Assembly (NCBI RefSeq): GCF_010015585.1
Contig: NW_022985079.1
Coordinates: forward strand, 310,001 to 374,000
Length of the DNA stretch: 64,000 nt
Source: Eremomyces bilateralis CBS 781.70
Lineage: Eukaryota; Ascomycota; Dothideomycetes; Eremomycetales; Eremomycetaceae
Reading direction: 5' to 3'
Shown here: piece by piece, positions 1,623 to 24,042 of the stretch
Layout: every line of letters starts with the position of its first letter
Numbering within the stretch: the stretch's first letter is position 1
Translations under genes and position numbers: made by a program
Notes under the pieces: model-generated
Told to the model about the DNA's origin: nothing
Seen by the model: the letters and a program-made list of their open reading frames with translations, nothing else
The model's database searches: none

Positions 1623-1710
1623 AAAGCACGGTCGAACGATGTGAACGAATTGAAATGAAGGGTTTGATTTGCTTCTTGTATAGTACATATCTACTACATC
1701 CAGAACGTCA

Positions 1711-5081: not shown

Positions 5082-7819
5082 TCAAGACGAAAGGAACCTC
5101 CTCTTCGAATTCCTCGCCCACTGATCCGTAAACGCCACCATCTTAACACAAACCATAACCACCTCTACCTTCCCATTATCCGGCTCATCCTCCGCCGGCT
5201 CCACAAGCACGCGCCACAGCGCCCGCTTCACAATCCATTGCTTCGTCACATCGAGCACCCTGTCGTGCCTGTTCACCGACCAGCGGCGAATTCGCGGCAG
5301 CAGGTTGGGAGGCTGACTCGTCATATCGCCGACCGCCTCCCACTCGATCAGTCCGCCGTCCAGCGTCACCGCGGAGTCCGTATCGAAGCGGACGCGCACC
5401 CGATCGCCACTGACACCCGAGTTTGCCGGGCTGACCGGCAGCGCGGACAGGCCCTCCGCGACGGGTTTGGGGGTCGGCGCTCCTTCGCGCTCGCGTTCTG
5501 CGCGGCCTTTCATCATCATGATCCCGAGGGGAAGATGCATCAGGGGCAGGTTCATCTTCGCGGCGATGACTTGGAAGAGACTCGAGATGCGGGACTTGGT
5601 CAGGCCGTAGAAGGTGGCGCGCATGGAGGTGAGATCCAACCGGGTCGCTTCGGGGGAACCAATCTCTACGATCAACGCGCTCGAGGCCTCGTCGGTATAT
5701 GGCCGTGCGTAACAGATGTGTCCGCGATGCGGCGGGATTCCCGCTCCTGGCGCCGGAGCTCCGGAAGCACTTGGGGGTGTGTCTGGAACAGTAGCAGGAT
5801 TGATCCGAGACTCCACCCCCCACCCAAGGTCTGCAAGTCGAGCAGGGGTGAAAGAAACGCCCGACTGCCGTACATCTTCCAGTCGGATGGTGATTTCCGA
5901 CTCGCTTCGTGCCAGATTGTAGCCGATTTCGCACGGCAGCAAGCGCTGCTCCACGCCTTTGAGATTGAAGTACCGCGCATCCCGAAGCAGGTCCTCGCGG
6001 TGTGCGTCATCTCTCACATTCACGGGATACCCCTTCAGGAGTCGGAGGAGATCGGCGAAGATCTCTGCCGATCGATTGGGGACGGCGGGCGGGAGGATGG
6101 AGGGAGGTCGGAGGAGCGTCTGGCGATCCAGGCCTGGGAAGGTGTCGCTTGGAGTGCCGAGGAAGTGGGCGAATCCGAGAGAGAAGAAATTCGGAGTGTT
6201 TCCGGGCCCGGAGAACAGCTCTCTTGGTATCTGGAAGTCACGGTCGCCAACGCGAACAAAGATTTCGGACTTGAAGAGTTGCTGCGTCAAGCGAGGTACT
6301 GTTGACGAGAGTTTAGTGGCGGGTGCATCGTACATTGGTGGTGCACTCACAGCTGTAGAATTGCGCATCGGCGTAGAGTCGTACGTAGTGCAGTCCATCT
6401 CGAGGTTTGATGTGATACCCTGGAGAATGTTAGTGTACACTAGATAGCCACACTATTACCACATACCTTGCAAATGCATTGAAATGTCCCGAAACGTGTT
6501 GGGATCGCGGTCAATATACAACGTGTGAATATTTCCCGATCGACCATCTGCGCTCAGCAATTGCTGGCCAAAGAAGTGCGAGAAGTACGACGGTGCTATG
6601 CACTGTCAGCCGGAGAACCTTCTGTACACGAAGGGAGTGGCACTGCTGCCCAGCGCGCATACTCACAATCCGACGAAATCGACGCCCCTGAAAGACGGAA
6701 GAGTTTCGAGCCGATCTGGATGGGGAACACTTTCCCAGCCGGCAAGACCGATGAAATGCTCGGGACGTCCGGGATCTGCCGGACTCGGACATTGGGTACC
6801 GACTTCTCCACCGAATGATCTCCATTCGCGTTTGCCGTGCCTCTCTCTGTAGACGTCTTCCTTGCTGCTGCAACGGCTTCCTCCTGTCTTGCTTCCCCTT
6901 CCCCTGACGCCCCAGCACCAGTGTTGACCGGTGACCAGTCGACCTCCACGCCATATTGACCCGCCGAAGACCGTCGCTCGGTTGCACCCGACGCGGTTCG
7001 CGACGTTGCTGATCTTTTGGAGGGTGGGAACAGGGGCTTGGCGGCGGCGGGGGCGGTTTGCGAATTGGCGGACGACGGTTCGGAGACGGCCTTCCTTTTC
7101 ATCCCGGTTTGGATCGCAGGTCGGGGAGGCGGCCGCGGCGATGTGGCCTGGGGTGGCGCGGGTGGTTGGGCGTGGAGGGAGGGTTCAGGGGCAGGGGACG
7201 TGGGCGGCGGATGCGATCGCGATGTCGGTTCACTCGCGTTGGCGGCGGCGTTTTTGGGAGGGGTCGACCGGCGGGAGGATTCGCCTACTTGCGGGGGGAT
7301 CGACTGGAACGGGGCAGCCCCAGGGCCAAGGTATTGGGACAGCGTGAAGTCCGGTTGGGAGGACCGCTGATTGTGCAACTCTTCCACCACGAGCTCCCCC
7401 TGCGGCTCGTAGAAGTGCGCGAAATCGCCAAACCCCGCCGTCGAGTTGTCCCAGTCCCACATCAGAGGCCCGGGGGAGGGAGTCTGTCCATATGTGTTGA
7501 TTCCGAGTCCTACTCCCACGCCGTATTGGGATTGCACCGCCAGATGGTGATGGTATTGTGCGGGCTGGCGCTGGTGGCCTGGCCCGCCCAGATTGGTTAT
7601 ACCGGGTGACGACAAGAACGGAGGATTCGGGATATTACTTCGTGTTGGGTCATCGCAGGTGGTATTTATGCTTTGGCTCGGAAGTATCGCATGCGTCTCG
7701 TCTCCTGCTCGGGGGGTACTCCTCCGTTGCGACGAGTTCGATTCGGCAGGCGTTTGGAAAGGCTTCGCACTGGAAAATGGACGGGGACGATCGGTCATTG
7801 GCAGACAGCTCTCTTTCAA
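5082..7819 (-). CDS. Double BTB/POZ (KCTD-like) protein with long disordered N terminus
   Basis: Proposed exons are 7819-6667, 6595-6467, 6419-6351 and 6298-5082 (855 residues). The first 330 or so residues are Pro/Ser/Ala-rich and look disordered. Two BTB-like modules follow. The first reads FPIQIGSKLFRLSG, then SYFSHFFGQQLL, LYIDRDPNTFRDI and GYHIKPRDGLHYVRLYADA. The second reads IFVRVGDRDFQIPRELFSG, FFSLGFAHFL and LLRLLKGYPVNV. The first module is split by three introns, and joining them gives the unbroken domain, which supports the model. The last 250 residues include a hydrophilic loop and a beta-rich tail. Tandem BTB modules of this kind occur in fungal Whi2-like growth and stress regulators; that role is inference. 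Another in-frame ATG, at 7798, could be the start. Confidence 0.78.
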
Positions 7820-8825
7820 TTCGCTCTTCTTGAGCCGACAGCGCCTCGAAAGGCCAGGTCGAAGCGAAACGAAGTTGAAAGGTCAACGACTTCGGGGGTA
7901 TGGTACGTGTACGGCTTACGCCTGTTGGTCGAACGTGCAAGGACCTCCCCTGATTCGCGCCCATAGGATCGAAACCTAACATCAAAGCTACCTTGAACCT
8001 TTGAAAAGGACGGTTCAGCAGAAAAATTCTTCGAAATGAAACTGTCCGGTGCCGAAAATCTGACCGGAATTTTATTTCTAGTTCCCTGGGGATGTCGTGT
8101 CATAAGGATGTCGGCTAGAGGTGAGGTGAGGTCTTGACTCCATCCTCTCATCCATTCACATTTCACAAGCATAACAAAGCACAGAGCAACGTTGCTTCGG
8201 CTTGGGCTTACGTGCGTCGAATACCTTCCAGTTTTACGCCCCCTGATGCCGGAAAGAGGAAATCAAATCTACCAATTTGGGATGGTGTCCTTATTTTCTC
8301 ATCTCACTCTTCGGCATTCCCCGTACCCGAGACGGGCACCGAAGACTCTGCCCGTCAGCCGATGCGATTGGATACCAGATCAATAACGAGAGGCATTGCG
8401 GCTTAGAATATTTGATTTGAAACCGGATCCATAGAGCCTGCCTCTTGGGTCCATACGGACGCTCCCGTTAGAGCCTGTATCCAGGATGGACGATGACGAC
8501 GATAATGTACACACCCCGATTGAGTCTGACTTCGCCTTTCGGGAGATAAAGAGTTGTAAGTTTTGTACTCCTTTAGTTCTGGTTACGGGACGTATATCGA
8601 TCCAGCTCCTCGTTTAATTATTCCGCCTCCACGGCATGAATACGATGACTCCCATCTCGTGGGCTCGAATGATCATTTTGCTTTGCATCTGACTAAGATT
8701 GCATCCGACTTGACACTCTTTGCTTTCAAATGCTTATCTGTGGTACGATGCCACGGTTGATGCTATTGTCTATCAGGAATATGGTATTTTAAATTCAAAG
8801 ACGCCGCTCGACTGAGGTTACCACA
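7820..8825. other. Intergenic, no gene seen
   Basis: About 1 kb between the BTB gene start and the GST stop. Several short open frames overlap on both strands but share no coding features or plausible introns. The half nearest 7820 is presumably the BTB promoter and leader. Confidence 0.4.
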
Positions 8826-9701
8826 TCACTGGAACACCGGGCTGAACGGTTCTCCCGTCAAATCGACGATCTTCTGCACGCCCCGTTTGTACGCGTCCCG
8901 TTCCTCGAGCCGCTTGACGTACGCAACCGTCTTGGGGTGCTCTTCTGCGTTGAGTCCCCCTCGGCTCATCGCGCCTTGGAGCGGGAAGATCATCATGATG
9001 TCCGCCCCCGTGAGGCTCTTCCCGCAGAGGAACTCCCCGGCGTCCGGGCTGCTGGCTACCTGGCTCTCCACGAAGGCGAAGTTCTGCTTGAGCTGGTTAC
9101 TGAGGAAGCCGTCGTTGATTTTTTGGGCGATGCTCTTGGTCACGGGCTTGATGAAGAAGGGCACGGGCGCATCACGGATCGCTATGGCGCTGGTCAGTAA
9201 CGATCAACAGAAATGGAGAAGGTCGATGGCGACGTACTGCCGACCATGAGCGCGATCAAAAGAGGAGGCATGAAGCTCCCTTCGGCGAAATGAAGCAAGT
9301 GCCGATAGCGCAGCCACTCCTCCGACTCGAACCCGATCGTCTCCTTGCCCTCGGGGAACCGCGCCGGGATCATCTGCTTCCCGAAACTCTCGGTCAAATA
9401 CTCCACGATGAACGCCGATTCGGCGATGATCAGAGGCTTCTCCCGACCCGGTGTCTGGATCTCGAGCAGGGGGCTCTTTCCAAGCGGATGGAGGTCGCGG
9501 AGCTCTTTTGGGGCGAGCCTGTCTTCGCCGCGTTTGTAGAGCTTGATTTCATACTCGAGGTTAAGTTCTTCGAGGAGCCAGACAATGCGATGGGAGCGGG
9601 AATAGTTCAACCTGTGCTTCCTTCAGCGGAGGCTCATTTTCTGCAGTTACTAGGATGACGTACCAGTGAATGGTGATCTTTGGAGTCTCCGTGGAAGCCA
9701 T
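8826..9701 (-). CDS. Glutathione S-transferase (Gtt1/Ure2-like class)
   Basis: Conjugates or reduces substrates with glutathione in the cytosol. Proposed exons are 9701-9664, 9611-9238 and 9181-8826 (255 residues). The N-terminal thioredoxin-like domain begins ITIHWLNYSRSHRIVWLLEE, where intron 1 falls inside the codon for Trp and splicing recreates the conserved HWL-SRS segment. It continues with HPLGKSPLLE, carrying the cis-proline position, and with ESAFIVEYL, where Glu-Ser binds the glutathione gamma-glutamyl group. The C-terminal helical domain holds FLCGKSLTGADIMMIFPL, the usual buried Asp region. Intron 2 is read to the second of two close acceptors, because the first would put a stop in frame. 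The length is normal for the family. The gene is divergent from the complex I subunit gene at 10567. Confidence 0.9.
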
Positions 9702-10566
9702 CGTTGCTTTTTTCGTAGGTTTGTCCTTTTCGATGAATTTATAGGATGGTGTGTCCCGCAATTGAATGTCTCGACTTGGTGGTTGAGGTATCGATGTCTA
9801 CTAAAGCTGTCGCCTACAAATATCTGTGTATAAACGTTGCTCACAAGTACAAAACTAGACTTTGACTTGATTTCTCAAATTGTCTCGAGTACGATGAGCT
9901 CCTACAAAGGCGTGACTTGTTCAGTTGTTCTTATAGATAATGGAGGTAGAGCTGGAACAAGGCTAAACGAAGGATGCTTGTGATCCGAATTGCCATGGAC
10001 TTCAATGACGTTACGGCCTTTACGAGCAGGGTCGGAGCAACTTATCTTCGATCGCCCGATTCGCTGGCGATCCTGGGGTGCATCGCTCCCGAACCATGAT
10101 GGGCGGTCGGTGGCGCTCGCGAATACATTTGCCGAGGTTCTTCATTATATCTATTGGGAATTAGGATCGGATTATCATTCCAGACGATCCAGATCATGCA
10201 TCAACCAGGGGACCTTTAATTCAATGCATTATCTCCCTGACGCCTAATTAAGGCAGACGAAGCTTGAACGAAAGACACTGGGGGGTTCCATATATGATGC
10301 TGCAGGCAGTTCAGCCAGACCAATGACAGATCCTTGTTGTTCCGTAAGTTTCGCTGACTAATATTCTTGCGTTACGATCCTCAACCTCATCTTCTCGAAC
10401 GAGCTCCCCACTCGACGGTGTCAAGCAATTGAAGGCCATCCCATTGTCCATTCGATTTCCTAGGGCGATCAAAGACGTCTTAAACAGCTGAGGGAGCGTC
10501 TCTGCCTTGATTATACCATCCACCACATCGGAGTAATCGACCGAGAGTCGGACCACAACCATCATC
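9702..10566. promoter_or_regulatory. Shared divergent promoter region, GST and complex I subunit
   Basis: 865 bases between two divergent starts. No coding features that I can support. By position this must hold both promoters. I could not pick out specific sites with confidence. Confidence 0.35.
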
Positions 10567-10957
10567 ATGGCCGGACACAACCCTCCCAGTAAGCTATCCG
10601 TCGCACACCGCGGCTTGTTGCGACATCTAACAGCCCTCTAGCTATACTCCTGGACCCGGCGCTGGTCAAATATGCCAGTACGTAACCCCTCACCGATGGA
10701 ACGATCGCGCGATAGCCACTGACATGCGACAGGCATGAGCGTCAACCGATATAAATACTTCCGATGGACCCCACGAACATTCGGGCTCACCCTTCTTTAC
10801 GTGGCGATCATCCCGTTCGGTATCGGATATGTTGCGTACAAGACCGATGTAGGTCTATCGATCGGATCGGATTGCTGGACTGAGGCTAATCTGGATTCGG
10901 TAGGGAAAATGGGATATGAGAGGGAAGCGGAAGGGGGATACGGTTTCCGAGTTCTGA
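10567..10957 (+). CDS. Mitochondrial complex I small subunit, NDUFB4/B15-like (6.6 kDa type)
   Basis: Accessory subunit of NADH:ubiquinone oxidoreductase, with a single membrane span in the mitochondrial inner membrane. It is split into four tiny exons, 10567-10588, 10642-10677, 10733-10848 and 10904-10957 (75 residues). The joined protein starts MAGHNPPTILLDPALVKYA, continues through NRYKYFRWTPRTFGLTLLYV into one hydrophobic helix (VAIIPFGIGYVAY), and ends KWDMRGKRKGDTVSEF. That order (LDPAL, YKYFRWTPR, a helix, then a basic R-KR-GD tail) is the known pattern of this fungal subunit. All three introns are 53-55 bases and every junction keeps frame. No single open frame shows more than the third exon, so an ORF-only view would mis-call it as a longer unrelated protein. 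Confidence 0.85.
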
Positions 10958-11384
10958 GCGAGGGATGGAGAGGGGTGAGGAATATAAGCACGGCTTATAG
11001 ACGATATCTTGAGTCGTTCTCATATGGCTTGGAGTTTGGGGTTTGCCGTGCTGCAAGAACGATGAATATCCCTGGATGTGCCGACCATTTCGGGCGGGAA
11101 GCATTGTACATACATAGAACTCGGCAAGAAAGAAGATATTCGATGACCGCCATGAATTCATTTAGGCCGTTGACATGCCCGTGGGATTGATACACCGATT
11201 GCCGCTCGTCCGAGCGAGAGAAAACATCTATCGAAACAGCCATCCGCAAAAACATATCCAAAAAAATCCATCGCCAAAACCCGCGCCTTGAAAGGCGCTC
11301 AGTCTATTACCCCAACCGAGTGATACCTGTCTCGCGACAATTCCTTTGTTCCTCCACGATATCATAACCGTATTCGCCAATCCA
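10958..11384. other. Convergent 3' flank, no gene seen
   Basis: 427 bases between the complex I subunit (+) and the Spd1-like gene (-). It should contain both 3' UTRs. I see nothing else in it. Confidence 0.4.
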
Positions 11385-12116
11385 TCACAGCCCCATTTCC
11401 ACCTCCATCTCCACGTCCTCATCCACCCACTCCCGCGGCTGCAAAAACTCCGCCTCCTCAAAATCCCCCGGGACCATCCTTGCACCACCCAGCGACTTCC
11501 GTCCTCCGCTCTTCGCCACCGCAAACTGGCGCATCCCTGCAACGTCTCCCAGCCCTGCGTCCATCTCCGCGTCTTCCTCCTCATACTCACGCAGAACACG
11601 CTTCCGCGTGTTCCCGGGCCTCCCTGCCGGCACGGAATCGCTCGACATGTGCGAGACGTTGGATTCTTGGGATGAGAAGGACGTCGTGCCATCGGATGCG
11701 ATCCCCAGGTCGCCGGGGAGGGCGTACGCGTTGACGGGGTAGGAGGGGTCTTGCGTGGCGAAATTTCCGGTCTTGAGGAGGCCGCAGAAGGGGAGGAGTT
11801 CCGCGGGCCGTTGTTGGGGGATTGGTGGTGGATGGTCGGGTTGGGAGGCTTCGGGGTGTAGGGTCGAGAATGACGTCGCAATATGGGTGGTGGTAGGAGG
11901 AATGTCGGGGACGTCGGTTAGGGTTTTGTGTGTTTTGTAGCCTTCGGGCACGGCTTTGCGGACGCGCATGCCGACAGAGAGGAGGGAGGATTGGACATTA
12001 TTAGGTATGGGAGGGGAGAGCTTGTGGTTGGCGTTGGGGGAAGACTTGGGTTGCGTGAAGTAGGAGTCGATGGTGGGTTGAAAGGGTCGTTTAACTCGGG
12101 GATTGGAGTTAGCCAT
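11385..12116 (-). CDS. Spd1/Dif1-like small regulator of ribonucleotide reductase
   Basis: Single exon, 243 residues. The start is placed at the ATG giving MANSNPRVKRPFQPTIDSYF, because the KRPFQPTI-SYF motif is the hallmark N-terminal segment of the Spd1/Dif1/Sml1-related proteins, which control ribonucleotide reductase location or activity. A second conserved-looking block, SLLSVGMRVRKAVPEGYKT, follows at about residues 37-55. The rest is low-complexity and acidic (REYEEEDAEMDAGLGDV, EWVDEDVEMEVEMGL), as expected for an intrinsically disordered inhibitor degraded in S phase. The open frame extends 46 codons further upstream, but that part lacks family features and I treat it as leader. The family assignment rests on the motifs alone, and these proteins diverge fast. 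Confidence 0.65.
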   Translation of the reverse strand: MANSNPRVKRPFQPTIDSYFTQPKSSPNANHKLSPPIPNNVQSSLLSVGMRVRKAVPEGYKTHKTLTDVPDIPPTTTHIATSFSTLHPEASQPDHPPPIPQQRPAELLPFCGLLKTGNFATQDPSYPVNAYALPGDLGIASDGTTSFSSQESNVSHMSSDSVPAGRPGNTRKRVLREYEEEDAEMDAGLGDVAGMRQFAVAKSGGRKSLGGARMVPGDFEEAEFLQPREWVDEDVEMEVEMGL

Positions 12117-13038
12117 TTCGACAAGATGGAGTGAAGCGACTGAGCTAGCTCTGATGTGGTGAAAAAGTGTGTTCGGAAGATTGATCGAATGTGGAGGATT
12201 AGATGGTAATCCGGATGGTGATGAAAGCCGATGGAACAAAGAACCGTAATGCAACTGCCCCGGGGAGGATTATTTCTTTAAAAATCGATGATCTCCTCCC
12301 TCGAGGCTGGTTATATAGCCCTGGATTTTCCGTTCACCTCTGGTCCGAAAGTGTCGAATGTGGGCCAACTCAGTCCTGTATGCAGCTTGGAGAATGGAAG
12401 ATGCAGGATGAATGTATGTATTACAGAATAGTATGATGCGAGACTCGTATGCGGCGGATCGCACCTGATTCGTGCCCTCCACTGTGCCCTCCACTTTTCC
12501 ACGCGCATTTGACGCGGTTCCCACCCCCGCGCCGACCGGCATTTTCTGCAGTAGCCCGTGCTGACCCCACGCTTAAGGAGACGTCCGTCCAGTCGTTGAT
12601 GGTGGATTCTCAAGCAATACACAATGTACGACGTGATAGAGATTCCGAACGTTTGCATTGTCTCTAAGGTTGCACGTCATGAGGAGTAGCTCAGTAGGTG
12701 ATGCTTCAGCTCTACACAGTATTGCGCAAGTTCCATCGAACCCATCCCCAGGGTACCTCTCTTCGCTCCATCCCGCTTGAGCATCTTTCGATCAAAGTCA
12801 ATCGTCTTGGTCTTTCTGGCAACAGTGTAATGCCTCCTTGTCCCGTATTCCATGGTGCTTTTCATAAGATATTCCCATTGCTGCGAAATTGGCGTCCGCC
12901 TTCCACAGATTACCCTCCCACAGAAGGATTCCCGAATTCCGTTGGCATCCAGCCGAAAGTAGACCTCCATCCAGTTAATACTTCTACATAGTAGTCCGCC
13001 TACCACAGGTCCACCAATGCTAGGTCTCTGATATTCTG
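12117..13038. other. Spacer with gene debris, no intact gene seen
   Basis: Upstream of the Spd1-like gene. The minus-strand frame at 12677-13006 has some amino-acid character but no recognisable domain. It may be the far 3' end of the decayed gene next to it. Confidence 0.3.
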
Positions 13039-13580
13039 CGTGTGCTCCTCATCTTCACGTTCCCAGCTCTTCCAGCCAAACTGCTTTCTTATCATGTATG
13101 ATAGAGTTTTCCACGTCTGGTACCGTCTTTGGATGCTTGTAACGTCACGAAACACGACCTGTTCCCGGGACTGATCTTGAATTCCTTGCTCAGAAAGACG
13201 TCGCCCCAGATATCTATCAATCTCCATTCGCTCAGCCGCTCCCCCAGGTCGATATGACCGAGGTGGAAAGGCTTGCCGTTATACTTCATCACCACTTCTT
13301 CCACACGCCTGTATATGGGACCGGCCAAAATGTACCATCGTCCTCACAAATCTTTGAATTCTTCCAATGCGTCCTGGGTCCACCACGATTCGAGACCATC
13401 AAATTTGGGGTTTCCCGATTGGCCCGGCGGAGGATCACACGTCAATTTCCAGCCTCCCGATTGCAAAGCCAAGGTCCCCACTCCCAGGTGCGGCGCTGGT
13501 AGCAGGATATCCGCTGCTAGATGTGAGAATCCGGGTATTGGGCATCCGAAAGGGTCCGAATCTGATCACTTGGAATAACA
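13039..13580 (-). pseudogene. Decayed gene of unknown function
   Basis: One minus-strand frame reads as plausible protein for about 160 codons. Fragments include PFGCPIPGFSHLAADILL, GWKLTCDPPPGQSGNPKF, ESWWTQDALEEFKDL, AGPIYRRVEEVVMKYNGK and RLSEWRLIDIWGDVF. The frame is broken by an in-frame TGA at 13346-13344, between KDL and GRWYILAG, where a Trp codon would suit the flanking sequence. There is no obvious start at one end, and the frame runs out near 13090 where a different frame (WEREDEEHTQNIRDLALV) takes over. I do not recognise the family. The Trp-rich, Asp-rich character is reminiscent of F-box-type accessory proteins of fungi, but I see no F-box. Splicing out the stop with a short intron cannot be fully excluded. 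Confidence 0.35.
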
Positions 13581-14292
13581 GGCCTTCCAGGCAGTAACCA
13601 AGCCACTCTATGCTTCCGTACCATTTAAGCTCTCGCTGACGTCGGCGAAGTCAACATCAGACCCTGGGTTCTCTCCAGAAACTGAGACATCGGTCCTCGG
13701 CCGTTACTAGAACTCGAAGCACTGGGATCCGGGGGATGACCTTCGGCAACACTGTCCAAGTGGCGTGAGTGGCTGGCAACTCATCACAATCGAGCCGAAC
13801 ATGAATCTTGCTGAAAAGGTGAGCCCCCAAGCTCAGCAAAAGCTTCTCGCGGCAAAGGCTAGATTACCGCCGAGTGGGCAGCTTAGTAGCGCTATATATA
13901 TGAGTGAGTGCCTTGTACTGGCTCTGGGCTCGCTAGCTGGCTACCTAGGAAGTTTAACATCTTGTAACGAGTGTAAGTTGACATGTTCTAGAATGTCTGC
14001 CTTGATGGCCGACGAGCGGCTCTGTGTAGACTTGCAATCTCGGGGGAGCAAACACAAGCCACGTGGCAAGGGAGGAAGTTCACCAGCAGAATGTTTATGT
14101 CTCTCACACAGAGACCAAAACTACTCCTTCAGATTTCATTTTCACACTGTTCTAGCTAGTAAATATTAGATTGTTACTCATACAGTCCTTCTTAACTGGC
14201 ACTCGTGTCATATCTTTGAGTAGAATATTTGCGTTGGCTAGCGTGCTACAGTTGTCACTATTAGGAAATTACTTTGCTCCGGCTTCGCAGCT
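13581..14292. other. Intergenic, no gene seen
   Basis: 3' flank of the NLR-like gene. It is AT-rich toward 14160-14290. No gene or repeat that I can support. Confidence 0.4.
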
Positions 14293-17200
14293 TTAATTAG
14301 TAACATTAACTAGAACACCCTCTCTAACCGTGCGCTTAGCCAGCGTATGGGATAGATCAGTACAAACAGCTCCGCTGGCAAGACAGTCTTCGCACATATC
14401 GAAATCGCCGTGATCACAGATTCCGCAGTGGTGGTGAGAGTCGAAATCTGGTATGGGTGCCAAACAGATCGAGCAGAAAATACGACATTTGGGGTCCACT
14501 GTAGGGCGCCTTACCGCAGGTAGTTCTTGTTTGGTAACGGGATTGCCCTGCCCCTTAAGCCTCTGAAGAAGAAGCTCTACAATAGGGAGATATCCTCTCT
14601 TGACAGCGTCCGACAGCGGCGTGCGACCGAACATATCCTGGGATCCAGGCTCGATGCTCTTCTTCGTAAGCAGCAGCGCGACAGCCCCCTCGTACCCATT
14701 CACCGCAGCTGCTGATAACGGGGCCCGACCGAACAGGTCCTTAGAATTAGGATCGACATCCTTCCTTGCGAGCAGGATCTCCATGGCCAGTGTATGTCCC
14801 ATCCTTGAAGCCCAAGTGAGCGGTGTCCGACTGTAATTGTCCCTCGAGTCCGCTTCGACGTCGTCCCGTTCGACCAGCAGCCGAACCACCGCCCCGTGCC
14901 CTCTTGCTGCCGCCATCGACAGCGGCGTCTGACCGTCTTTATCCGTCGAGTCCGCTTCGACGTCGTCCCGTTCGACCAGCAGCCGAACCACCGCCTCGTG
15001 CCCATTCTCTGCCGCCATCGACAGCGGCGTCTGACCGTATTTATTCGTCGAGTCCGCTTCGACGTCGTCCCGTTCGACCAGCAGCCGAACCACCGCCTCT
15101 TGCCCGCTTGCTGCCGCTATCGACAGTGGCATCCGACCGTATTTATCCCTCGAGTCCGCTTCGACGTCGTCCCATTCGACCAGCAGCCAAACCACCGCCT
15201 CGTGCCCTCTTGCCGCCGCCCACCATAGCGGCGTGCGACCGTCTTCATCCCTCGAGTCCGCTTCGACGTCGTCCCGTTCGACCAGCAGCCGAACCACCGC
15301 CTCGTGCCCNNNNNNNNNNNNNNNNNNNNNNNNNNNNNNNNNNNNNNNNNNNNNNNNNNNNNNNNNNNNNNNNNNNNNNNNNNNNNNNNNNNNNNNNNNN
15401 NNNNNNNNNNNNNNNNNNNNNNNNNNNNNNNNNNNNNNNNNNNNNNNNNNNNNNNNNNNNNNNNNNNNNNNNNNNNNNNNNNNNNNNNNNNNNNNNNNNN
15501 NNNNNNNNNNNNNNNNNNNNNNNNNNNNNNNNNNNNNNNNNNNNNNNNNNNNNNNNNNNNNNNNNNNNNNNNNNNNNNNNNNNNNNNNNNNNNNNNNNNN
15601 NNNNNNNNNNNNNNNNNNNNNNNNNNNNNNNNNNNNNNNNNNNNNNNNNNNNNNNNNNNNNNNNNNNNNNNNNNNNNNNNNNNNNNNNNNNNNNNNNNNN
15701 NNNNNNNNNNNNNNNNNNNNNNNNNNNNNNNNNNNNNNNNNNNNNNNNNNNNNNNNNNNNNNNNNNNNNNNNNNNNNNNNNNNNNNNNNNNNNNNNNNNN
15801 NNNNNNNNNNNNNNNNNNNNNNNNNNNNNNNNNNNNNNNNNNNNNNNNNNNNNNNNNNNNNNNNNNNNNNNNNNNNNNNNNNNNNNNNNNNNNNNNNNNN
15901 NNNNNNNNNNNNNNNNNNNNNNNNNNNNNNNNNNNNNNNNNNNNNNNNNNNNNNNNNNNNNNNNNNNNNNNNNNNNNNNNNNNNNNNNNNNNNNNNNNNN
16001 NNNNNNNNNNNNNNNNNNNNNNNNNNNNNNNNNNNNNNNNNNNNNNNNNNNNNNNNNNNNNNNNNNNNNNNNNNNNNNNNNNNNNNNNNNNNNNNNNNNN
16101 NNNNNNNNNNNNNNNNNNNNNNNNNNNNNNNNNNNNNNNNNNNNNNNNNNNNNNNNNNNNNNNNNNNNNNGTCTGACCGTATTTATTCGTCGAGTCCGCT
16201 TCGACGTCGTCCCGTTCGACCAGCAGCCGAACCACCGCCTCGTGCCCTCTTGCTGCCGCCCACGACAGCGACGTCCGACCGAAACTATCCTTCGAGTCCG
16301 CTTCGATGCCGATGTCGCCGCATTTGCCCACTAAGAGTTTCTCTGTCAAATAAAGCAGTCCATACCTCGCTGCAAGGTGCATGCCCGTTGTTTGATTTGG
16401 GAATCTCGTACTATAGCCTTCGTATTTATAGTTTGACATAGACACAGCTTGGATGGCGGCGTCAACTAAGGCTTCGTCGCAGAGAAAGGCTAGCGCTAAG
16501 CTAGAAGTTGTCTTCTCCACAGGCCGTATATGCTCGCTCCAATAACGTGCTGAGTAGTCATAGAATGCATTCTCGGTAAGCTTCTCCGCGAAAGCTCTAT
16601 CATTAGCACAGCTGCCGCTCCGAAACGCGTCGAAAGATAAATACGTTAAACAGGCTACCGTTATCGCTTCCTGAGCGCTAGGGTTCCATTCCAGGCGTAT
16701 GCGCTCAAAGTACTCCTGTGTCGTGTAGTGCACGAGCCGGATGACGTTGCTCTCCTCGTCTACCGTAACAAGCCCAGCGCAGACGGAGATAACGTCTTCC
16801 ACGTCATCAACACTATCATTGTTCAGAGTTTTATCGTCTGGCTCGATAGCTAGCGCATGGCATAGCTCTCGAGTAGTAAGTGGTCTCTGGGCATATGTTA
16901 TCCAAGATAGTGCACACCTTGCCAGCGAACGGTCATTGTCCAGTTGCCCGTCTATTCGCTTGATGGCCTCGCCATAGGCTTTTTCGAGCGCCGCTGAACC
17001 CTTAGTCAGTTTCTCTAGCGTAGACATAACACTCTGTTTATTCCTTTTATCAAGGAGTGAGTCGACATGAAGACGCGCGAGAAGGAACCTGGCCATTCAG
17101 TAAGTAAAACTGCTTCGCAATTGTAAACCACTAGAGAGCACCCACATGCCATCAACGGCTCCCGCAATCTTGTCCTGTACAAGATTCTGGAGCTCCTCGT

Positions 17201-18484
17201 TGCGTTGAATACATTTCGGTAGACGTGGTATATGACCATCTATAAAATGCCTGACGTCCGAATCGCTGGCTCGCACCTCTAGACTTGGGCTCGATCGAAA
17301 TCTTTCCGTTACTTCGGGAATGAATCGGGAGGTGAGCATAAGCCGCAAGTCTCCTTTCGTTTGCAGCTCGCAGAGCTTGTCGATAAGTCGTCCCCGCCCA
17401 CCATCTGTGTCCGCGCATTCGTCCAACGCATCTACAAGAATATATACCGTAGTTTGGTTGGAGCAGACAGACTGCAGAGCCTCGAATATGTCGCTGAGGG
17501 ATGGCCGGCTTTTCTTCTTTGTGTGATAATCGTACATGCGCGTCACCGGGGTTGCCATGTCCGGTTGGCTCTGCACTAACTGTTTCAGGAGAGCAGTAAG
17601 CAGATTAAATACGCTCTGGTCGGCTTTCGCCTTATAGCTGCAAAACAGGTAAGCAATTTCAACGTTATCACTCTGCACCGTCCTACAGAGATGGTCGATA
17701 GCAATAGCTGTCATCATAGTCTTGCCGGCTCCAGGGATGCCAGGACAAAATAGCGTCCGATTGGCTCCCTGCGACCACTCTTGAAACTCTGGAGAGTCTA
17801 TAAACCATTGCCCCGTATCTTCTTGTCTTCGGGAGATAATATCGTGTTGCTGGGCCGGGAAGTCTGTCGGCGATAGCCAATCCAGCATCGTCTGGCGCTG
17901 CTGGAGCTTCTGGGCGTCCCATTGCAGGCTTTGAGTGTCCCGGATGGTGACGATATCTGCTTGAAGGAAGGGGATAGCATTTCGCATAACTTTAGTGTCC
18001 TCCTTAATCGCTTCGGATAGTTTGCTTTGATACCATAAGCAAGCATGCTTCGACCCGTTGCCTCGACGACTTACAAATGGTCCATCTCAAGCGAAATACT
18101 CACAAGACTCTTCAACCGCTCCAGTCGTGATAGAATACTCGCAACTTCTGCCTTGATAAACTTCCACAGGACCTGCCTCTTAACCATTTTTGTCGTATTT
18201 TGGATTTCCACTCTCGAACATAGCTGCTCTAAGGTCTGCTTGTACTGGTCGAGAGGTCCATTCGCAACGGTGAGAGCCCGAACTGCTGTGAACCAGGGAT
18301 CATTGGTATGACCCTGTTCAAGGAGATAACGAAGACTCATTAGGAGAGATTGAAGGTTCGATGCCTCGATCGTGCATTGTTGGCATTCTTTCGGCGCGTC
18401 CCTGACATCGTTCAGGTACTGGATGACTTTGCCTGTGAGCTGCAAAATGGCGATAACGCCGGCGGTGACGCTGAGCGGATCCAT
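14293..18484 (-). CDS. STAND receptor (fungal NLR): HeLo-like, NACHT, ankyrin repeats, ZZ zinc finger
   Basis: Proposed exons are 18484-18075, 18024-17146 and 17088-14293; the last contains the assembly gap 16170-15310. Residues 1-130 start MDPLSVTAGVIAILQLTGKV, the HeLo-like N-terminal domain of fungal STAND proteins. The NACHT domain shows the P-loop FCPGIPGAGKTMM, Walker B VYILVDALDEC and the sensor region LRLMLTSRF. A helical linker follows (LARCALSWITYAQRPLTTRELCHAL, LVHYTTQEYFE). Next come 34-residue ankyrin repeats: two and a half before the gap and seven after it. The C terminus carries a ZZ-type zinc finger (FCSICLAP, HHHCGICDHGDFDMCEDC). Intron 17089-17145 restores the DGMFLLARLHVDSL motif. 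Such proteins act in non-self recognition and programmed cell death in fungi; the ligand here is unknown. The N count breaks the reading frame between the two halves, but that comes from an approximate gap length, not from visible mutation. Confidence 0.85.
14600..15309 (-). repeat. Tandem 102-bp ankyrin-coding repeats, C-terminal side of gap
   Basis: Seven repeat units of exactly 102 bases (34 codons). The same landmark recurs at 14621, 14723, 14825, 14927, 15029, 15131 and 15233. The units nearest the gap are almost identical in DNA and protein (core EADS...GHEAVVRLLVERD), while the three nearest the 3' end have diverged. Differences among the near-identical units cluster at a few positions after EADS and around the PLS-AA segment. 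Confidence 0.9.
15310..16170. other. Assembly gap (861 N)
   Basis: A run of 861 undetermined bases inside the ankyrin array. With a 102-base period, the flanks only line up if the real gap is 25 bases plus a whole number of repeats (for example 841), so 861 is an estimate. Confidence 0.97.
16171..16330 (-). repeat. Ankyrin-coding repeats, N-terminal side of gap
   Basis: About one and a half units of the same 102-base repeat as at 14600-15309, reading IEADSKDSFGRTSLSWAAAR, then GHEAVVRLLVERD, then the start of the next unit up to the gap. The unit beside the gap is nearly identical to units on the far side, consistent with array collapse during assembly. Confidence 0.85.
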
Positions 18485-20233
18485 TTTGCGATAGGACTAA
18501 GTGGGGAGAGTGAGGAGAGTTGCTCTTTGATGAACGACATCGTTTGAGCATCTTGTAGCTGTACCGCTGTAATTAGCCTTCCGGTGAACCAGGGGAGCTC
18601 CAGATGCGGCGTACTCTGCCTTGCTGTGCCAATGTCTGCGCCATCTTAATGCGCCTCCTGTTTGCTGGCACGTGTCAGGAACTTTGGTATACTCGTCACG
18701 TCACTGTATTGCTACTTTGTTCGCTCCTGTACTCTATCTTCACCGTGTGAGTATAATGACTGCTTATGAGTACTCAAGGAAAAGGGAAATTTAGTGAGCT
18801 ACCTGAGTCACCACCCGTCCCCGGCGTTGAAATAGACTTATGTACGGGACGGGCGGCGGTCCCCCTAGTATGTGATGTACGCTGAGAGAGCCTAAGTTAG
18901 CTTGTTGAGACTAGTAGCACGAGTCACTCCCACGGCCGGCCACGATCATCCAGGATGGCATCCGTTGAAGGTCTCCACTTATTAACGCATTCATCACTTC
19001 TAGACTTCTAGTAGAGTAGTGCCCAATGCTTGCCAATTGAAACTTCATAGATTCCTTTGGACAATCGATATCATAGAATAGAAGAGTGAGATATGAATAC
19101 AGCTATGAAAGGTGTTGAGGTAGTGAGAAGCATGAGCAATGCCTAATCTATTCAAATTCCAAGTGACGTTTGGTCTTACCTACACCTTATATAACGAGTA
19201 ATTAACCACAACTCTACTTGACTTTAGTTCTTGTAGAAGTGTCCTTTTGGTTTGGTGGTTAAAGTCGTCTTATAAGTTAGCAGTGGCTATAAATCAAGCG
19301 AATGGTACATATCGGGTAAGCATATCCGTCAATCAATCCTCAGTCTCTCTTCGAATGCCTTAGGGTCATTGAGCCCGCCATTAGCATTGACGACACTGCA
19401 AGACGACACCTCTTGGCCACCCCATGGATATCAGGTGGTCATCTCGTTCTCATGGCTCAGCTCCGACAAAACCAGTGATAATGGCGCTGTAAACCAGCAT
19501 AGCGTGCATGAAATGCTCCGCCGCGACGGAGGCAGAAGCGTTACGAATAACAGATTATAACCAGAATTGAGAGCAAGAAACGACTTGAACTTGAGTAGTG
19601 CCGATTTTCTTCTTTCCCCTAACCAGCCGCGTGATCTTACCTTCATCTGGTTTTCTTCGAACGCGGATGGTGCCCAACGTCCCTGAAAGATATGACTGTA
19701 TATTATAGGAAGACTAATAAGGCAGGGAGAATGCGAGTTTATACAAACTGATAAGAAATACTCTATCTAGACAACACATGAAACGACGCGGAATGGAGAT
19801 ATATCACATGGAGCGGGGGAGAGAAATGCCGCGATTAGGAATCGGTCGTCATCGTAGAAAACTATGGAAACTGGCCCAGAGCATAGTTCACCATACTGGA
19901 CGCCGGTAATGTAGGGAACCGAGTTTTCAACATGGCGAAGGCGTGATGCTTCACCGGCCCTAGAGCTGGAACTCTTCAGTGATCCTGGGCCAATCAATAA
20001 GACGCCCAAAACCTACCAAGAGACATCACTCGCGCAGGACATCCTCGACGAACTCCCTACACCTCCACCATATCAACGCCAAATACCTATGTTTCTGGTT
20101 AGAGCCATGGCTTCATTCTTAATATCTTTGCTAATCAGCCATCAGCTATAGCCACTACTCAACATTGCTCTGTAACGCTACCGTGTAGGCATGCGTAAAA
20201 GTCTCCTGTTTGACAAACTTCATTTACATTCCA
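18485..20233. other. Long intergenic region, no gene seen
   Basis: About 1.75 kb upstream of the NLR-like gene. It is rich in stops in all frames and has no recognisable element ends. The promoter of the NLR-like gene must lie in its first part. Confidence 0.4.
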
Positions 20234-21043
20234 CTAAGTAGAGAATGACTGGTATCTATTCCAAGTCATTTCGCCCTCCTCCATGGTCCTAATGATAACC
20301 CAAGCCATCGGCACGACTGGCCTAGAAGGGCCTCCATTCGAAGGCCGAGCGCTAGGCGGTATGATTCTCTCTAGAAACGCAGGAACTTCATCCACGTATC
20401 TCTGGAGACTGGCATCGAAGAACAATATCAGCGATCCTCGAAGGATGTTCGCGCCAAATACCTCTCGGTATCTCGCCTCTGTCGCCCGCAATGTAGGCAT
20501 TATTGCGGGTTCCGGAGATGGGGATTCGGAACTGGAGGGTTCCGAGGACTCGGAATCGTCGGGGGCGGGGGAAGCAACAGGCGCGGATGTTGTAATCGCT
20601 GCAGGTGCTGCATTGGGGCCGGAAGATGGAGCAGGAGGGGCAGACGTTTCGGTTGGCTCTTGGCCGGCCGCTAGGCCCGAGGTGTTAGCATACAACGTGA
20701 GACAGGACTGAATGGGGAGGTTGTATCATAGTCGTCGTAAGCGAAACATACCCATAACCTGGATCCGTCGCAACGTAAACAAGGTGAGCTGACGGAGCAG
20801 GTCCTCTCCTATATGTCCCAAGTCTATAAAGTTAGTACGGCGCCTGGAAACATGAAGGTAAAGGAGGTACTTACCCATACCGGTTTCATCAGATAAGGCC
20901 CCTCTCAGACTTCTATCGGGGATGCCATCGAGTACCCGTCCTAGAACCTCCTCCAGAACGGGAGGGTAATTGGAGAATGGAGATTCTCCTTGAGCTCCAT
21001 GAACGGTATCTCCTTGAACACCATCGTTATCCTGTGAGGTCAC
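20234..21043 (-). CDS. Unknown protein, three exons
   Basis: Proposed exons are 21043-20875, 20823-20752 and 20670-20234 (225 residues). I do not recognise the family. The N-terminal part is NYPPVLEEVLGRVLDGIPD, then LGHIGEDLLRQLTLFTLRRI, likely helical. The middle is Ala/Pro/Ser/Thr-rich low complexity. The end is an ordered-looking block (TLRATEARYREVFGANILRG, LILFFDASLQRYVDEVPAF, VVPMAWVIIRTMEEGEM). Intron 20671-20751 is chosen because a perfect GCTAAC branch site lies shortly before its CCTAG acceptor; another acceptor at a nearby CAG would give a different second junction. No transmembrane segment. The gene sits in the sparse block between the NLR-like gene and another unknown gene. Confidence 0.5.
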
Positions 21044-22196
21044 TGGTCCAATGTCAGTCAGTCATACTCGATATCTCACTTTGTATGGGATACCTTACTG
21101 ATGACTGCTAGATTGAGAGGTTGATAGAACACAGTTTGGAGCGAATATGTAGATGCGTAAAGAGAACCGAAGAGAGCGTTAAAAGATGAGAACACTCTTT
21201 ATGCAGGCCAACGGCTCAGTACATGTTGTTATCACTTATTTTTGCCGTTAATCAGTTGAAATTGAAGCCACACGGCTGAATAGAACTCTGATCCTTTCGA
21301 CATCGCTTCATGGGCGACATCTGTCATCACACCAAAAATACAGATACTTGCCAACAGTCCAACGGGTGCTTGCAACCAATTTCTGTGCATCCACACACTA
21401 AGACAGCGAATGTCTGTTCCACAATGCAATATTATATTGAAACAGTCCGATCCCAGAGCCATCAGGGGCAAATTACCACCAGTCCCTGGACAAAGCCCCA
21501 AAGTGTTATTTTCAGTGCGCTATCAATGTAAAATGCACCGATGATGATTGAGTCCTGGCTAGGTGTTACATTCGACATGGTTTCGGTCATAATACTTAGA
21601 ATGATCTGCTGATGTTGGGCACACATATTTGGAAGCGTAGAAAGGAGAGAGGTCAGAGTTTAGGACAGGGTCAAATATGGTGTCCTCCAAAAGACTTTTA
21701 GAGGATGCAATGGGATCGGCATCAGCTTTGTCATCTACAAGACATCCCTGAGCATCGGCTTACAGTATATTGTTGAACAGTTGATCACCTGGCTAGTCCA
21801 CGGCCAGTGCTCTATTTATCCTCCGACTGAATCTGATGCACTTCATGCCAGTCACCCTCAAGGCATCTGGCTTACCACTAAGAGTCAAATATCCGTGTCA
21901 GAATCTGCTACCACCTTCAGTTCTGACCAAGGAGGGGGGGATTGAGAGCGATATCATTCTCCCCAAGTAATGCGAGCCGATTCTCTCTCACCTCGACAAG
22001 TGCTTCTGTCTGGTCCAGTTGCAGAAATAATCGGATCACTGCTCTGATTTGGTGTCTGTCAGTGGCTGTTGTCACTTGGCCAAGTGTCACGCGTATTACA
22101 ATCAATATGAGGAAGCATACTTGTGAGGAGACGGTTGACTTATCTCCTAGGTGTCTCTTAGGAGCGAGTCACTTTTATAAATAAGTTCTGATCAAC
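21044..22196. other. Intergenic, no gene seen
   Basis: 1.15 kb with only short overlapping open frames on both strands and no recognisable domain. Confidence 0.35.
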
Positions 22197-22214
22197 TCAT
22201 ACATGTAAACAAAG

Positions 22215-22330
22215 GGGGAAAAGCAAGGGAGCCATAGCAGCAGTGACGGAGCCAAAGCACACTGAGAACGGAGCCACAGCGCACAGAGAACGGAACCACA
22301 GCGCAGAGAGGACTGAGACACCACGAATCC
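22215..22330. repeat. Short tandem repeats, about 21 bp
   Basis: Four imperfect copies of a unit like AACGGAGCCACAGCGCACAG (about 21-25 bases) follow each other. They are internally variable and lie between two unknown genes. Confidence 0.6.
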
Positions 22331-22499
22331 ACGACAAGCCACAACCTATTGCTGGCTCTTCGGCAGTTTCTTTTTTAGCCTCTCCTCTATCACAGCTGTT
22401 AGGCTCAACACCCCTTTCCCCTTCTCTTTCATTGACTCTTACCCCATGCCTTGCGGCCCGACTTTCGCTCTGCACTTCATCGGGCCGTGCACTGTACTT

Positions 22500-22605
22500 C
22501 CAGCATGCCCTTCATTGTGTCCCACATCGCGTCTTGCACAATGCCCTTCATCGTGTCTCACTTCGTGTCGTGGGGCATGCCCTTCACCGTGTCCTGTAGC
22601 ATGCC
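22500..22605. repeat. Short tandem repeats with ATGCCCTTCA core
   Basis: Three imperfect copies of a 35-45 base unit built on GCATGCCCTTCA and GTGTCYCAC. It is separate in sequence from the repeat at 22215-22330. Confidence 0.55.
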
Positions 22606-22619
22606 TTCAATTATGTTGC

Positions 22620-23100
22620 TCATGACATTTTCATGGATGAAACATCGATTCTTGCTTCATCATCGCCATAATTTCTGCCGAGAAGAGACCGTTGTTTGTA
22701 CTCGGGTGCCTCCCAGTGTCTATGTGGGCTCCTAGATCGACCTCTCACCTCATGAGTTTCGTTTTCGGAATGTTCTGAAAAGAAGGGTTTCTTATACATA
22801 GGATTATCCCAAATCGCCTGCTTGATATCGGGGGTAGATTCCTCATACTCCTGGGTGAGCCGGTTTCTGAGGATTGCGAAAGCCCCCTCGGCCCGATTTT
22901 TCAATTTTTCAATTCTCCGGTTCGCGCGGATAGCTTCTATTTTGTTAGTTCTCTCTCTTTGGACAAAATGAAGTGAGACAGCGCTTACTTTACCGCCCGT
23001 TAGGAACATGCCAGTGAGGCCATATCAGTTCGAGATCATCGCAAGGGAATTTTGCCTCGATTTCGTACTTTATATCCTTTGGGGATAGACTTGGGGCCAT
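22620..23100 (-). CDS. Small unknown charged protein
   Basis: Proposed exons are 23100-22994 and 22956-22620 (147 residues). The protein starts MAPSLSPKDIKYEIEAKFPC, continues LELIWPHWHVPNGRERTNKI, then a basic helical stretch (RRIEKLKNRAEGAFAILRNR), DIKQAIWDNPMYKKPFF, and an Arg/Ser/His-rich tail (RGRSRSPHRHW). I do not recognise it. Joining the frames needs an intron of only 37 bases (22957-22993), unusually short even for fungi, so either the join is wrong or the gene is degraded. An in-frame ATG at 23184 would add 28 residues. Confidence 0.4.
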
Positions 23101-23231
23101 CAGTTCCGTCGACCACTTGTGGTGGGTGGGCAGTTGTGTATAAATACGGGTGTTTTGGAGGGGGGGAAGAGACAGATGATACATCTAACGTGGACGATGA
23201 GGGTTATTGAGCTGGTCGTGTACCTGCTGTA

Positions 23232-23253
23232 TAAGGCAACCTTTGGTTGAGTA
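23232..23253. repeat. 22-bp motif shared with 50179-50200
   Basis: Contains AAGGCAACCTTTGGTTGAG and is identical over 22 bases to the copy at 50179, in otherwise unrelated surroundings. It could be the end of a DNA transposon or MITE. No partner inverted copy is visible nearby. Confidence 0.45.
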
Positions 23254-24042
23254 GCTACAGTAGTTGAGGGTCCGAACAATAGGGGGTGGCTGAATACGAT
23301 TCAAGAGTGGCTAATCACCATGCCTGACCGCAAAAATAGGAGACTGGAGAGCCATCAGATCAAGCGATGCTAATATACAATTCTACATGCAAGACAGTGG
23401 CAGAACAGACATTTGCAGGAGATGAAATCAGTAATGCGATATCCTTGACGTGCTTCACTATTTTACCCACAAAGAGAGTCATGTAAGAGATCTCGTCAGT
23501 GCCAACGAATAACCACTCGACCAAAAATACACAGGGCCTATTGCAGCGTACTAACAACATGGACTCTGCAACTACTCCTTTTTAATTTTTTTTCTCTTGT
23601 TCCTTTATATTATATCGACCTGTCGAATTTAAGGGGGCATATGGCAGAGCTCGTCAAGGGTTTGTTGTCTTTAAGTTCAACTGACTACGAATCATCGGTT
23701 GATGCGGTGGATCCCTGGGGGTGGGGGATTGGTGGCACGTAATTTCAACATGTCATCGAAATGAGACGCAGAGTAGTTGGTATGGAACGTCTAGGTAGTA
23801 TTTTTTAGTAATGGTCATCTAAAACTCATAATATTCATCAACTCAGGAGGTAATAGCTGCGTCGCGGAGGTCCCGCAAACCTAAGTTCCGCGAACCTGGA
23901 GCTTGACCTCCGTATCACCGTATCACCAAAGATTGGCATAATGGGTGTCTATTCTTGTTGACCCGCACTGTTGAAGGTCCATCTATAGCTCAAGAGCAAA
24001 CACATGTCTTGGCTAATCGGTCTTTCCTAGTCGACCACTTGA
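23254..24042. other. Intergenic, no gene seen
   Basis: About 790 bases before the 3' end of the Mch1 gene. It contains a short T/A-rich tract near 23578-23610. No gene that I can support. Confidence 0.4.

What the first reader, a model, noticed from the sequence alone, without database searches (positions are those of the whole stretch)
14293..18484. NLR-like receptor with HeLo-like, NACHT, near-identical ankyrin repeats and a C-terminal ZZ finger
The combination puts a cell-death-type N-terminal domain, a STAND switch and a fast-evolving repeat array with a ZZ zinc finger in one protein. The array units beside the gap are almost identical in DNA, the mark of concerted evolution seen in fungal incompatibility receptors. 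The zinc finger at the very end is an uncommon cap and may be a sensor or partner-binding module. This is the best candidate in the window for a non-self recognition system.
Basis: partly seen in the sequence, partly recalled or inferred. Interest (0 to 1): 0.75.

Follow-up and report, generated by a model that had tools for sequence, protein, structure and literature searches.

The report
Fungal NLR immune-receptor gene with finger
This is a fungal immune-type receptor gene of a known kind, built from a likely membrane-attacking head, a molecular switch, a rapidly changing ankyrin-repeat sensor and a small zinc-finger-like tail; it is a good example of the kind, not a new one.

Summary
A minus-strand gene, 18484 to 14293, has three exons and encodes an N-terminal domain, an intact NACHT switch, a winged helix, an ankyrin array cut by an 861-N gap, and a Cys/His-rich end. 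The N-terminus matches HeLo-like PF17111 only below cut-off (18.4 against 27.2 bits), but matches a profile of six fungal N-domains at 40.0 bits, against 10.8 for the best of 2460 decoys. Pfam ZZ does not match the tail; a four-sequence ZZ profile ranks it above 5000 shuffles, so "ZZ-like". Six array units are 78-99% identical in DNA. Codons 1-19 hold no synonymous difference; 12 of 16 variable residues lie in codons 20-34, the hairpin and inner helix (split chosen after seeing the alignment). This layout is published for fungal NLR ankyrin arrays (PMC4986451, section 17). ZZ fingers in NLRs are published too: 17 in Sordariales (PMC12258605, section 14). It is a new member of a known kind. A role in non-self recognition is plausible but untested; no isolates could be compared.

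The parts
18075..18484 (-). Exon 1: HeLo-like N-terminal helical domain (about residues 1-137), hydrophobic first stretch at residues 3-21
   Evidence: gene model; PF17111 18.4 bits, below cut-off, over residues 1-144; profile of six fungal N-domains E 6.5e-11; low-confidence helical model, pLDDT 46; mean hydropathy 1.53 at residues 3-21
18025..18074 (-). Intron 1, 50 nt, GT-AG
   Evidence: joins ...EMDHF to KLSEAIKED in frame
17146..18024 (-). Exon 2: linker and the NACHT ATPase
17325..17819 (-). NACHT/NPHP3_N switch, residues 206-370, with Walker A GIPGAGKT and Walker B ILVDALDE intact
   Evidence: NPHP3_N E 9.5e-38; motifs read from the sequence (motif names recalled)
17089..17145 (-). Intron 2, 57 nt, GT-AG
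   Evidence: the reading frame of relative L001 is also broken at this point
16701..16940 (-). Winged-helix domain, residues 480-559
   Evidence: GPIID_WHD E 9.2e-12
16171..16388 (-). First ankyrin repeats before the gap, including the partial homogenised unit preB (16247-16171)
15310..16170 (-). 861-N gap inside the ankyrin array; equivalent to about 8 units if its length is right
14800..15309 (-). Five complete 102-nt (34-aa) similar ankyrin units, post1 to post5
   Evidence: block pLDDT 58-96 in the AlphaFold2 model of the fragment
14540..14799 (-). Divergent ankyrin cap repeats (two full, one partial)
14347..14475 (-). ZZ-like finger: CxxC-x12-CxxC-x7-CxxC-x6-C-x4-H
   Evidence: Sequence; PDB match to an S. 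pombe ZZ protein E 0.0014; small ZZ profile 19.1 bits against 12.9 for the best of 5000 shuffles; no Pfam ZZ match

Best explanation
This is a fungal NLR of the all-in-one type. In the resting state the ankyrin array and winged-helix domain hold the NACHT switch closed. A cell-internal ligand (a variable self protein after hyphal fusion, or a protein of a bacterium, virus or rival fungus) binds the concave face of the ankyrin array, formed by the diversified hairpin and inner-helix positions. Nucleotide exchange then lets the NACHT domains form a ring, which brings the HeLo-like helical bundles together so that their hydrophobic first helices insert into the plasma membrane and kill the cell. 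The ZZ-like finger at the end is most likely an extra protein-binding module that adds to the sensor. Shown here: the gene model, intact switch motifs, remote homology of the N-domain to HeLo-like domains, the homogenised array and where its variation lies. Inferred from the family: auto-inhibition, ring formation, membrane attack, the nature of the ligand and the role of the finger.
For: Domain matches and intact reading frames. N-domain: PF17111 matched along its first 145 of 209 positions, and a profile of six fungal N-domains gives 40.0 bits against at most 10.8 for 2460 decoys. Of those six seed rows, two (L017, L012) passed the PF17111 cut-off and four did not. Array: 6 units (one partial), no synonymous difference in codons 1-19 and 7 of 15 codons with synonymous variation in 20-34 (Fisher P 0.0012; P 0.029 without the edge unit post5); 12 of 16 residue-variable codons lie in 20-34 (P 0.0008; 10 of 13, P 0.0034 without post5). 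The AlphaFold2 model puts codons 27-34 in the inner helix and 11-26 in the loop and hairpin. The same layout is published for fungal NLR ankyrin arrays. The review describes HeLo-like domains fused directly to NLRs as an all-in-one form and HeLo/HELL domains as membrane-targeting.
Against: PF17111 is not reached at its cut-off. phmmer found no HeLo or MLKL structure for the N-domain at E<=10. The N-domain model is of low confidence. The 19/20 boundary in the array tests was drawn after seeing the alignment, so those P values are too favourable. Over the whole array the nonsynonymous-to-synonymous ratio is near 1 (1.00 for six units, 1.40 without post5, 1.15 for post1-4 alone); in codons 20-34 it is 0.74-1.02, and in codons 1-19 it cannot be computed (nonsynonymous changes only), so positive selection is not shown by ratio. 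No ligand, isolate or functional data were available.
Confidence: 0.7

Rival explanations
1. A vegetative incompatibility (het) gene: the array recognises allelic variants of a host protein, as HET-D and HET-E do with HET-C.
For: Homogenised repeats with diversity on the binding face, as in het NLRs (abstract of PMC12222747; section 17 of PMC4986451).
Against: [quoted passage not shown] No allele data are available.
Confidence: 0.15
2. A receptor for other organisms (bacteria, mycoviruses, rival fungi) with no role in incompatibility.
For: Same architecture; the review proposes broader roles beyond incompatibility for fungal NLRs.
Against: No direct evidence here; no function is known to me for this gene or its close relatives.
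Confidence: 0.45
3. A decaying or non-functional copy whose array length changes neutrally by unequal crossing-over.
For: The frame across the gap cannot be verified. The ratio of changes in codons 20-34 is close to 1.
Against: No stop in 735 and 338 codons and intact splice sites, intact Walker motifs by reading, no RIP footprint in the array. A neutral process does not simply predict that codons 1-19 have no synonymous difference while codons 20-34 do.
Confidence: 0.1
4. The ZZ-like finger is an integrated decoy copied from another host protein.
For: The best PDB match is a chain with an S. pombe ZZ protein, P35G2.11c (Nbr1, an autophagy receptor; name and role recalled). Integrated decoys are proposed for kinase domains of fungal NLRs.
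Against: The match is weak (best stretch i-E 0.14) and spacing and ligands are divergent; no donor gene was searchable, as the genome is not held.
Confidence: 0.08

Closest known systems
Fungal HeLo-like/NACHT/ANK NLRs (Dyrka et al. 2014, PMC4986451, passages and section 17 seen; PMC12258605, passages and section 14 seen)
   Same: Domain order; NACHT type with ankyrin repeats; homogenised repeats; variable sites in the hairpin and inner helix
   Different: This copy carries a C-terminal ZZ-like finger, and its N-domain is divergent enough to miss the PF17111 cut-off
Sordariales NLRs with treble-clef zinc fingers beside repeats (PMC12258605, section 14)
   Same: C-terminal zinc finger next to canonical repeats; 17 ZZ fingers were reported in NLRs, and 16 treble-clef fingers next to canonical repeats
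   Different: Here the finger fails Pfam ZZ and has C-x4-H where the aligned HERC2 finger has H-x3-H
HET-E/HET-D NLRs of Podospora anserina (PMC12222747, abstract and impact statement seen)
   Same: Highly similar repeats, homogenised, that short-read assemblies cannot resolve
   Different: WD40 repeats and a HET/TIR-type effector (PMC12881547 passage), not ankyrin and HeLo-like
MLKL and plant ZAR1-type resistosomes (PMC12881547, passages seen)
   Same: Helical-bundle effector; in ZAR1 joined to an NLR
   Different: Remote homology by way of the HeLo-like family only; no pore shown here

Membership tests
Fungal NLR (STAND, NACHT) | NACHT-type P-loop NTPase with Walker A and B | tested here: met
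   NPHP3_N 130.4 bits against cut-off 24.8; the NACHT model itself 23.7 against 26.7, below cut-off; motifs read directly
Fungal NLR (STAND, NACHT) | Winged helix after the ATPase and a C-terminal superstructure-forming repeat array | tested here: met
   GPIID_WHD 45.7 bits (cut-off 27), Ank_2 161.9 bits after the gap
Fungal NLR (STAND, NACHT) | Ligand-triggered oligomerisation | not testable with these tools
   Needs biochemistry
HeLo-like PF17111 | Profile match at the curated cut-off | tested here: not met
   18.4 bits against 27.2; filed here as a HeLo-like relative, not as a PF17111 member
HeLo-like PF17111 | Homology to sequences that pass the cut-off | tested here: met
   Profile of six N-domains, two of which pass, 40.0 bits; single best match L017, which passes at 45.8 bits, phmmer E 7.1e-7 at Z=100
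HeLo-like PF17111 | Four-helix bundle fold | tested here: inconclusive
   Helical model, pLDDT 46; no HeLo or MLKL structure matched by sequence; no fold search run
HeLo-like PF17111 | Membrane targeting and cell killing | not testable with these tools
   Only a hydrophobic first stretch seen
ZZ finger PF00569 | Pfam profile match | tested here: not met
   No match at E<=10; filed here as ZZ-like only
ZZ finger PF00569 | Cys/His ligand order of a ZZ treble clef | tested here: inconclusive
   Three CxxC pairs present, last pair C-x4-H; 19.1 bits with a four-sequence ZZ profile against 12.9 for the best of 5000 shuffles; finger not modelled with confidence
Incompatibility (het) gene | Allelic variation with cell death between unlike strains | not testable with these tools
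   No isolates and no genome held
Concerted-evolution NLR array | High internal repeat identity with diversity at binding-face sites | tested here: met
   only 6 units of one allele, one of them partial, and a boundary chosen after seeing the data
Concerted-evolution NLR array | Repeat-number polymorphism among strains | not testable with these tools
   No isolates; the array holds a gap

The most novel reading that the evidence does not exclude
The array is built of two parts that evolve apart: a framework half (codons 1-19, outer helix and loop) kept identical at silent sites, and a paratope half (codons 20-34 plus residue 12) that is exchanged as linked blocks between units, a natural counterpart of a designed ankyrin-repeat binder library. 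The divergent ZZ-like finger caps it as a second, separate sensor (for example of an autophagy-type ZZ target), so the receptor would have two inputs.
Probability: 0.12. Interest if true: 0.6.

Novelty: new member of a known kind. Interest (0 to 1): 0.33.

Why it matters
It is a clear, testable example of an all-in-one fungal death receptor with a self-renewing sensor. The split between a silent-site-identical half and a variable half of each repeat is a handle on how fungi make receptor diversity without a somatic system. The finger fits the published suggestion (PMC12258605, passage) that zinc fingers may be additional canonical sensor domains of fungal NLRs.

Tried and rejected
Searches for relatives in viral contigs with residues 1-673 and with residues 1-172 found none. 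The PDB search with the N-domain gave one match, a stretch of an MCM protein at E 1. AlphaFold2 without an alignment was too weak for the N-domain and for the finger; no fold search was run at all. In the fungal-contaminated genome G001, Pfam ZZ had no match at E<=0.1, and the window's tail gave only one chance-level match, E 0.65 over 25 residues, so no second case of the finger was found. The PDB search with the tail also listed non-ZZ proteins at chance level (delta-aminolevulinic acid dehydratase, E 0.53-0.58; the RING protein EL5, E 0.79), next to a second chain with the S. pombe ZZ protein (E 1.5) and KCMF1 (E 8.8 and 9.5). A Cys-rich insert in the NACHT region of relative L013 looked like the same finger by eye but failed a shuffle test (873 of 4999 scored targets ranked above it) and is dropped. 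A RIP origin of the variation was rejected for the array (no RIP index signal). Positive selection is not claimed, because the ratios are near 1. A partner effector gene was sought among 30 of the 151 open frames of at least 110 aa (list): ten, twenty; no NLR or HeLo-type domain was matched. Frames shorter than that, multi-exon genes and the other 121 frames were not scanned, apart from the NLR itself. The paper terms 'NACHT', 'ZZ-type' and 'fungal' together gave 0 papers, but PMC12258605 reports ZZ in NLRs under 'zinc finger'. PMC8683736 (passages seen) was looked at for the randomised positions of designed ankyrin repeats; the passages do not number them.

Seed rows: PF17111 matches in G001 lay at seven places. 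Six were used (L017, L024, L001, L012, L025, L023); L022, the strongest match, was left out because its frame held stops. L013 was not a PF17111 match and was not used.
Full report
What is there. On the minus strand from 18484 to 14293 there is a three-exon gene. Exon 1 is 18484-18075, intron 1 18074-18025, exon 2 18024-17146, intron 2 17145-17089, and exon 3 starts at 17088 and runs through an 861-N gap (15310-16170) to the stop at 14293. Both introns are short and GT-AG, and both joins restore smooth protein (...EMDHF|KLSEAIKED and ...GM|FLLARLHVDS). There are 735 codons before the gap and 338 after it without a stop. The frame does not continue across 861 N and the gap is 8.2 units long after correction for phase, so its length is estimated or it is masked. 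No genome is held for the window. Other genes in the window (MoaC, Serinc, a MULE transposase, an ion channel, a phospholipase D) and the short introns fit a filamentous fungus; that is inference, and the species is unknown.

The domains. Pfam gives an NPHP3_N (NACHT-type) ATPase at residues 206-370 (E 9.5e-38), a GPIID winged helix at 480-559 (9.2e-12) and ankyrin repeats on both sides of the gap. The Pfam NACHT model itself is just below cut-off (23.7 against 26.7 bits). Walker A (GIPGAGKT) and Walker B (ILVDALDE) are intact by reading; the motif names are recalled.

The N-terminal domain. Scanned as residues 1-197, the N-terminus matches PF17111 at 18.4 bits, cut-off 27.2, along residues 1-144. 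PF17111 is the HeLo-like family (PMC9815663, passages seen). To test this further I used relatives. A genome scan found one full-length relative in a record labelled as a Deltaproteobacteria MAG, 37% identical in its best segment, residues 2-673 matched. Its contig carries a fungal-type Zn2Cys6 protein by eye and an interrupted NLR frame, so I take it as fungal contamination. That genome holds ten stretches that match the query and nine that match PF17111, at seven places. A profile made from six N-domains of that genome, the window left out, scores the window's domain at 40.0 bits, E 6.5e-11, while the best of 2000 shuffles and 460 other frames of the window reaches 10.8. Two of the six seeds (L017, L012) passed the PF17111 cut-off and four did not; the strongest PF17111 match, L022, was left out because of stops in its frame. 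The single best partner, L017, passes at 45.8 bits. So the domain is a HeLo-like relative, though not a cut-off member. The AlphaFold2 model without alignment is helical but of low confidence (pLDDT 46), and no solved HeLo or MLKL structure is matched by sequence. The first stretch is hydrophobic (mean hydropathy 1.53 at residues 3-21).

The array. The unit is 102 nt, 34 residues. Six units can be compared, one partial (preB, 77 nt) and five complete. Fifteen pairs range from 80/102 to 76/77 identical bases; the ten pairs without the edge unit post5 range from 86/102 to 76/77. The next units, post6 and post7, are 54/102 and 61/102 identical to the consensus. Codons 1-19 (outer helix and following loop) hold no synonymous difference in six units, while 7 of 15 codons in 20-34 hold synonymous variation (Fisher P 0.0012; 4 of 15, P 0.029 without post5). 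Of 16 residue-variable codons 12 lie in 20-34 (P 0.0008; 10 of 13, P 0.0034 without post5). The boundary was drawn after I had seen the alignment, so these P values are too favourable. In the confident units of the AlphaFold2 model codons 3-10 are the outer helix, 27-34 the inner helix and 11-26 the loop and hairpin. This is the layout published for P. anserina ankyrin NLRs, where, with one exception, variable sites lie in the inner helices and hairpin of the concave face and repeat number varies among strains (PMC4986451, section 17 read). All six positions that designed ankyrin libraries randomise (recalled, from no call; mapped by eye to unit positions 12, 22, 23, 25, 33, 34) are among the 16 variable ones (P 0.006; P 0.0013 for the 13 variable positions without post5). 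Against a strong claim of positive selection, nonsynonymous-to-synonymous ratios in codons 20-34 are 0.74 to 1.02; in codons 1-19 there are nonsynonymous changes only. The likely reading is homogenisation by recombination, with retained, linked diversity in the variable half; codon 20 and codon 25 types are linked (T with Q, R with R, in 6 of 6 units) while codon 23 (Y or D) occurs with both.

The tail. The last 74 residues carry CxxC-x12-CxxC-x7-CxxC-x6-C-x4-H. Pfam ZZ is not matched at E<=10. phmmer against the PDB puts a chain that includes the S. pombe ZZ protein P35G2.11c (Nbr1; name recalled) first, at E 0.0014 (best stretch i-E 0.14); the other seven hits are at chance level (E 0.53 to 9.5): four with non-ZZ proteins, a second chain with the same S. 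pombe protein, and two of KCMF1. A profile of four ZZ stretches (HERC2, p62, two of the S. pombe protein) scores the tail at 19.1 bits, first of 5002 targets; the best of 5000 shuffles reaches 12.9. The bias term, 9.6, is high because of the cysteines, and shuffles do not keep cysteine spacing. The AlphaFold2 confidence is below 50 there. 'ZZ-like' is therefore justified and 'ZZ' is not proven. No second case of this finger was found in genome G001. That is right but published: in Sordariales NLRs zinc fingers were found in 57 NLRs, in 52 of them C-terminal; 17 are ZZ, and 16 fingers, all treble-clef, sit next to canonical repeats (PMC12258605, section 14 read).

How it most likely works. In the all-in-one form described in the review (PMC12881547, passages seen) a HeLo-like domain is fused to the receptor. 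Ligand binding on the ankyrin face would open the NACHT switch, the receptors would assemble, and the clustered helical bundles would attack the plasma membrane. These steps are inferred from the family. Whether the trigger is an incompatible mate or another organism cannot be told; [quoted passage not shown]

Novelty. Each piece and the kind of combination are published. The most novel reading is the two-speed repeat with an extra finger sensor, which only allele data can test.

Noticed in passing
L001, L012, L013, L017, L022-L025 (genome G001): A record labelled Deltaproteobacteria MAG (NYXK01, G001) holds contigs with interrupted, fungal-type NLR genes and, by eye, a Zn2Cys6-type protein; it looks contaminated or mislabelled.
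   Followed up: partly
window 15106-15207: Array unit post2 differs from the consensus by 8 changes; 5 are of the C>T type and 4 of these are in CpG, including two Arg-to-Trp changes. The array shows no RIP index signal.
   Followed up: partly
L013, about 2980-3220: A NACHT/ankyrin NLR with a Cys-rich insert after the Walker B region. Similar by eye to the window's tail, but not supported by a shuffle test.
   Followed up: yes
window 41507-42856: A MULE transposase with a FAR1 DNA-binding domain, about 23 kb from the NLR's start; the neighbouring frame 40519-41304 has no Pfam match but may be its other part.
   Followed up: no
window 16001-24000: The 2-kb windows here have G+C 0.468-0.485 against 0.510-0.586 in 1-14000. 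None of the five frames scanned between 18.5 and 24 kb had a Pfam match at E<=0.01, and tandem repeats lie at 22.2-22.6 kb.
   Followed up: no
window 26750-28123: A clear Serinc family protein, E 8.1e-165.
   Followed up: no
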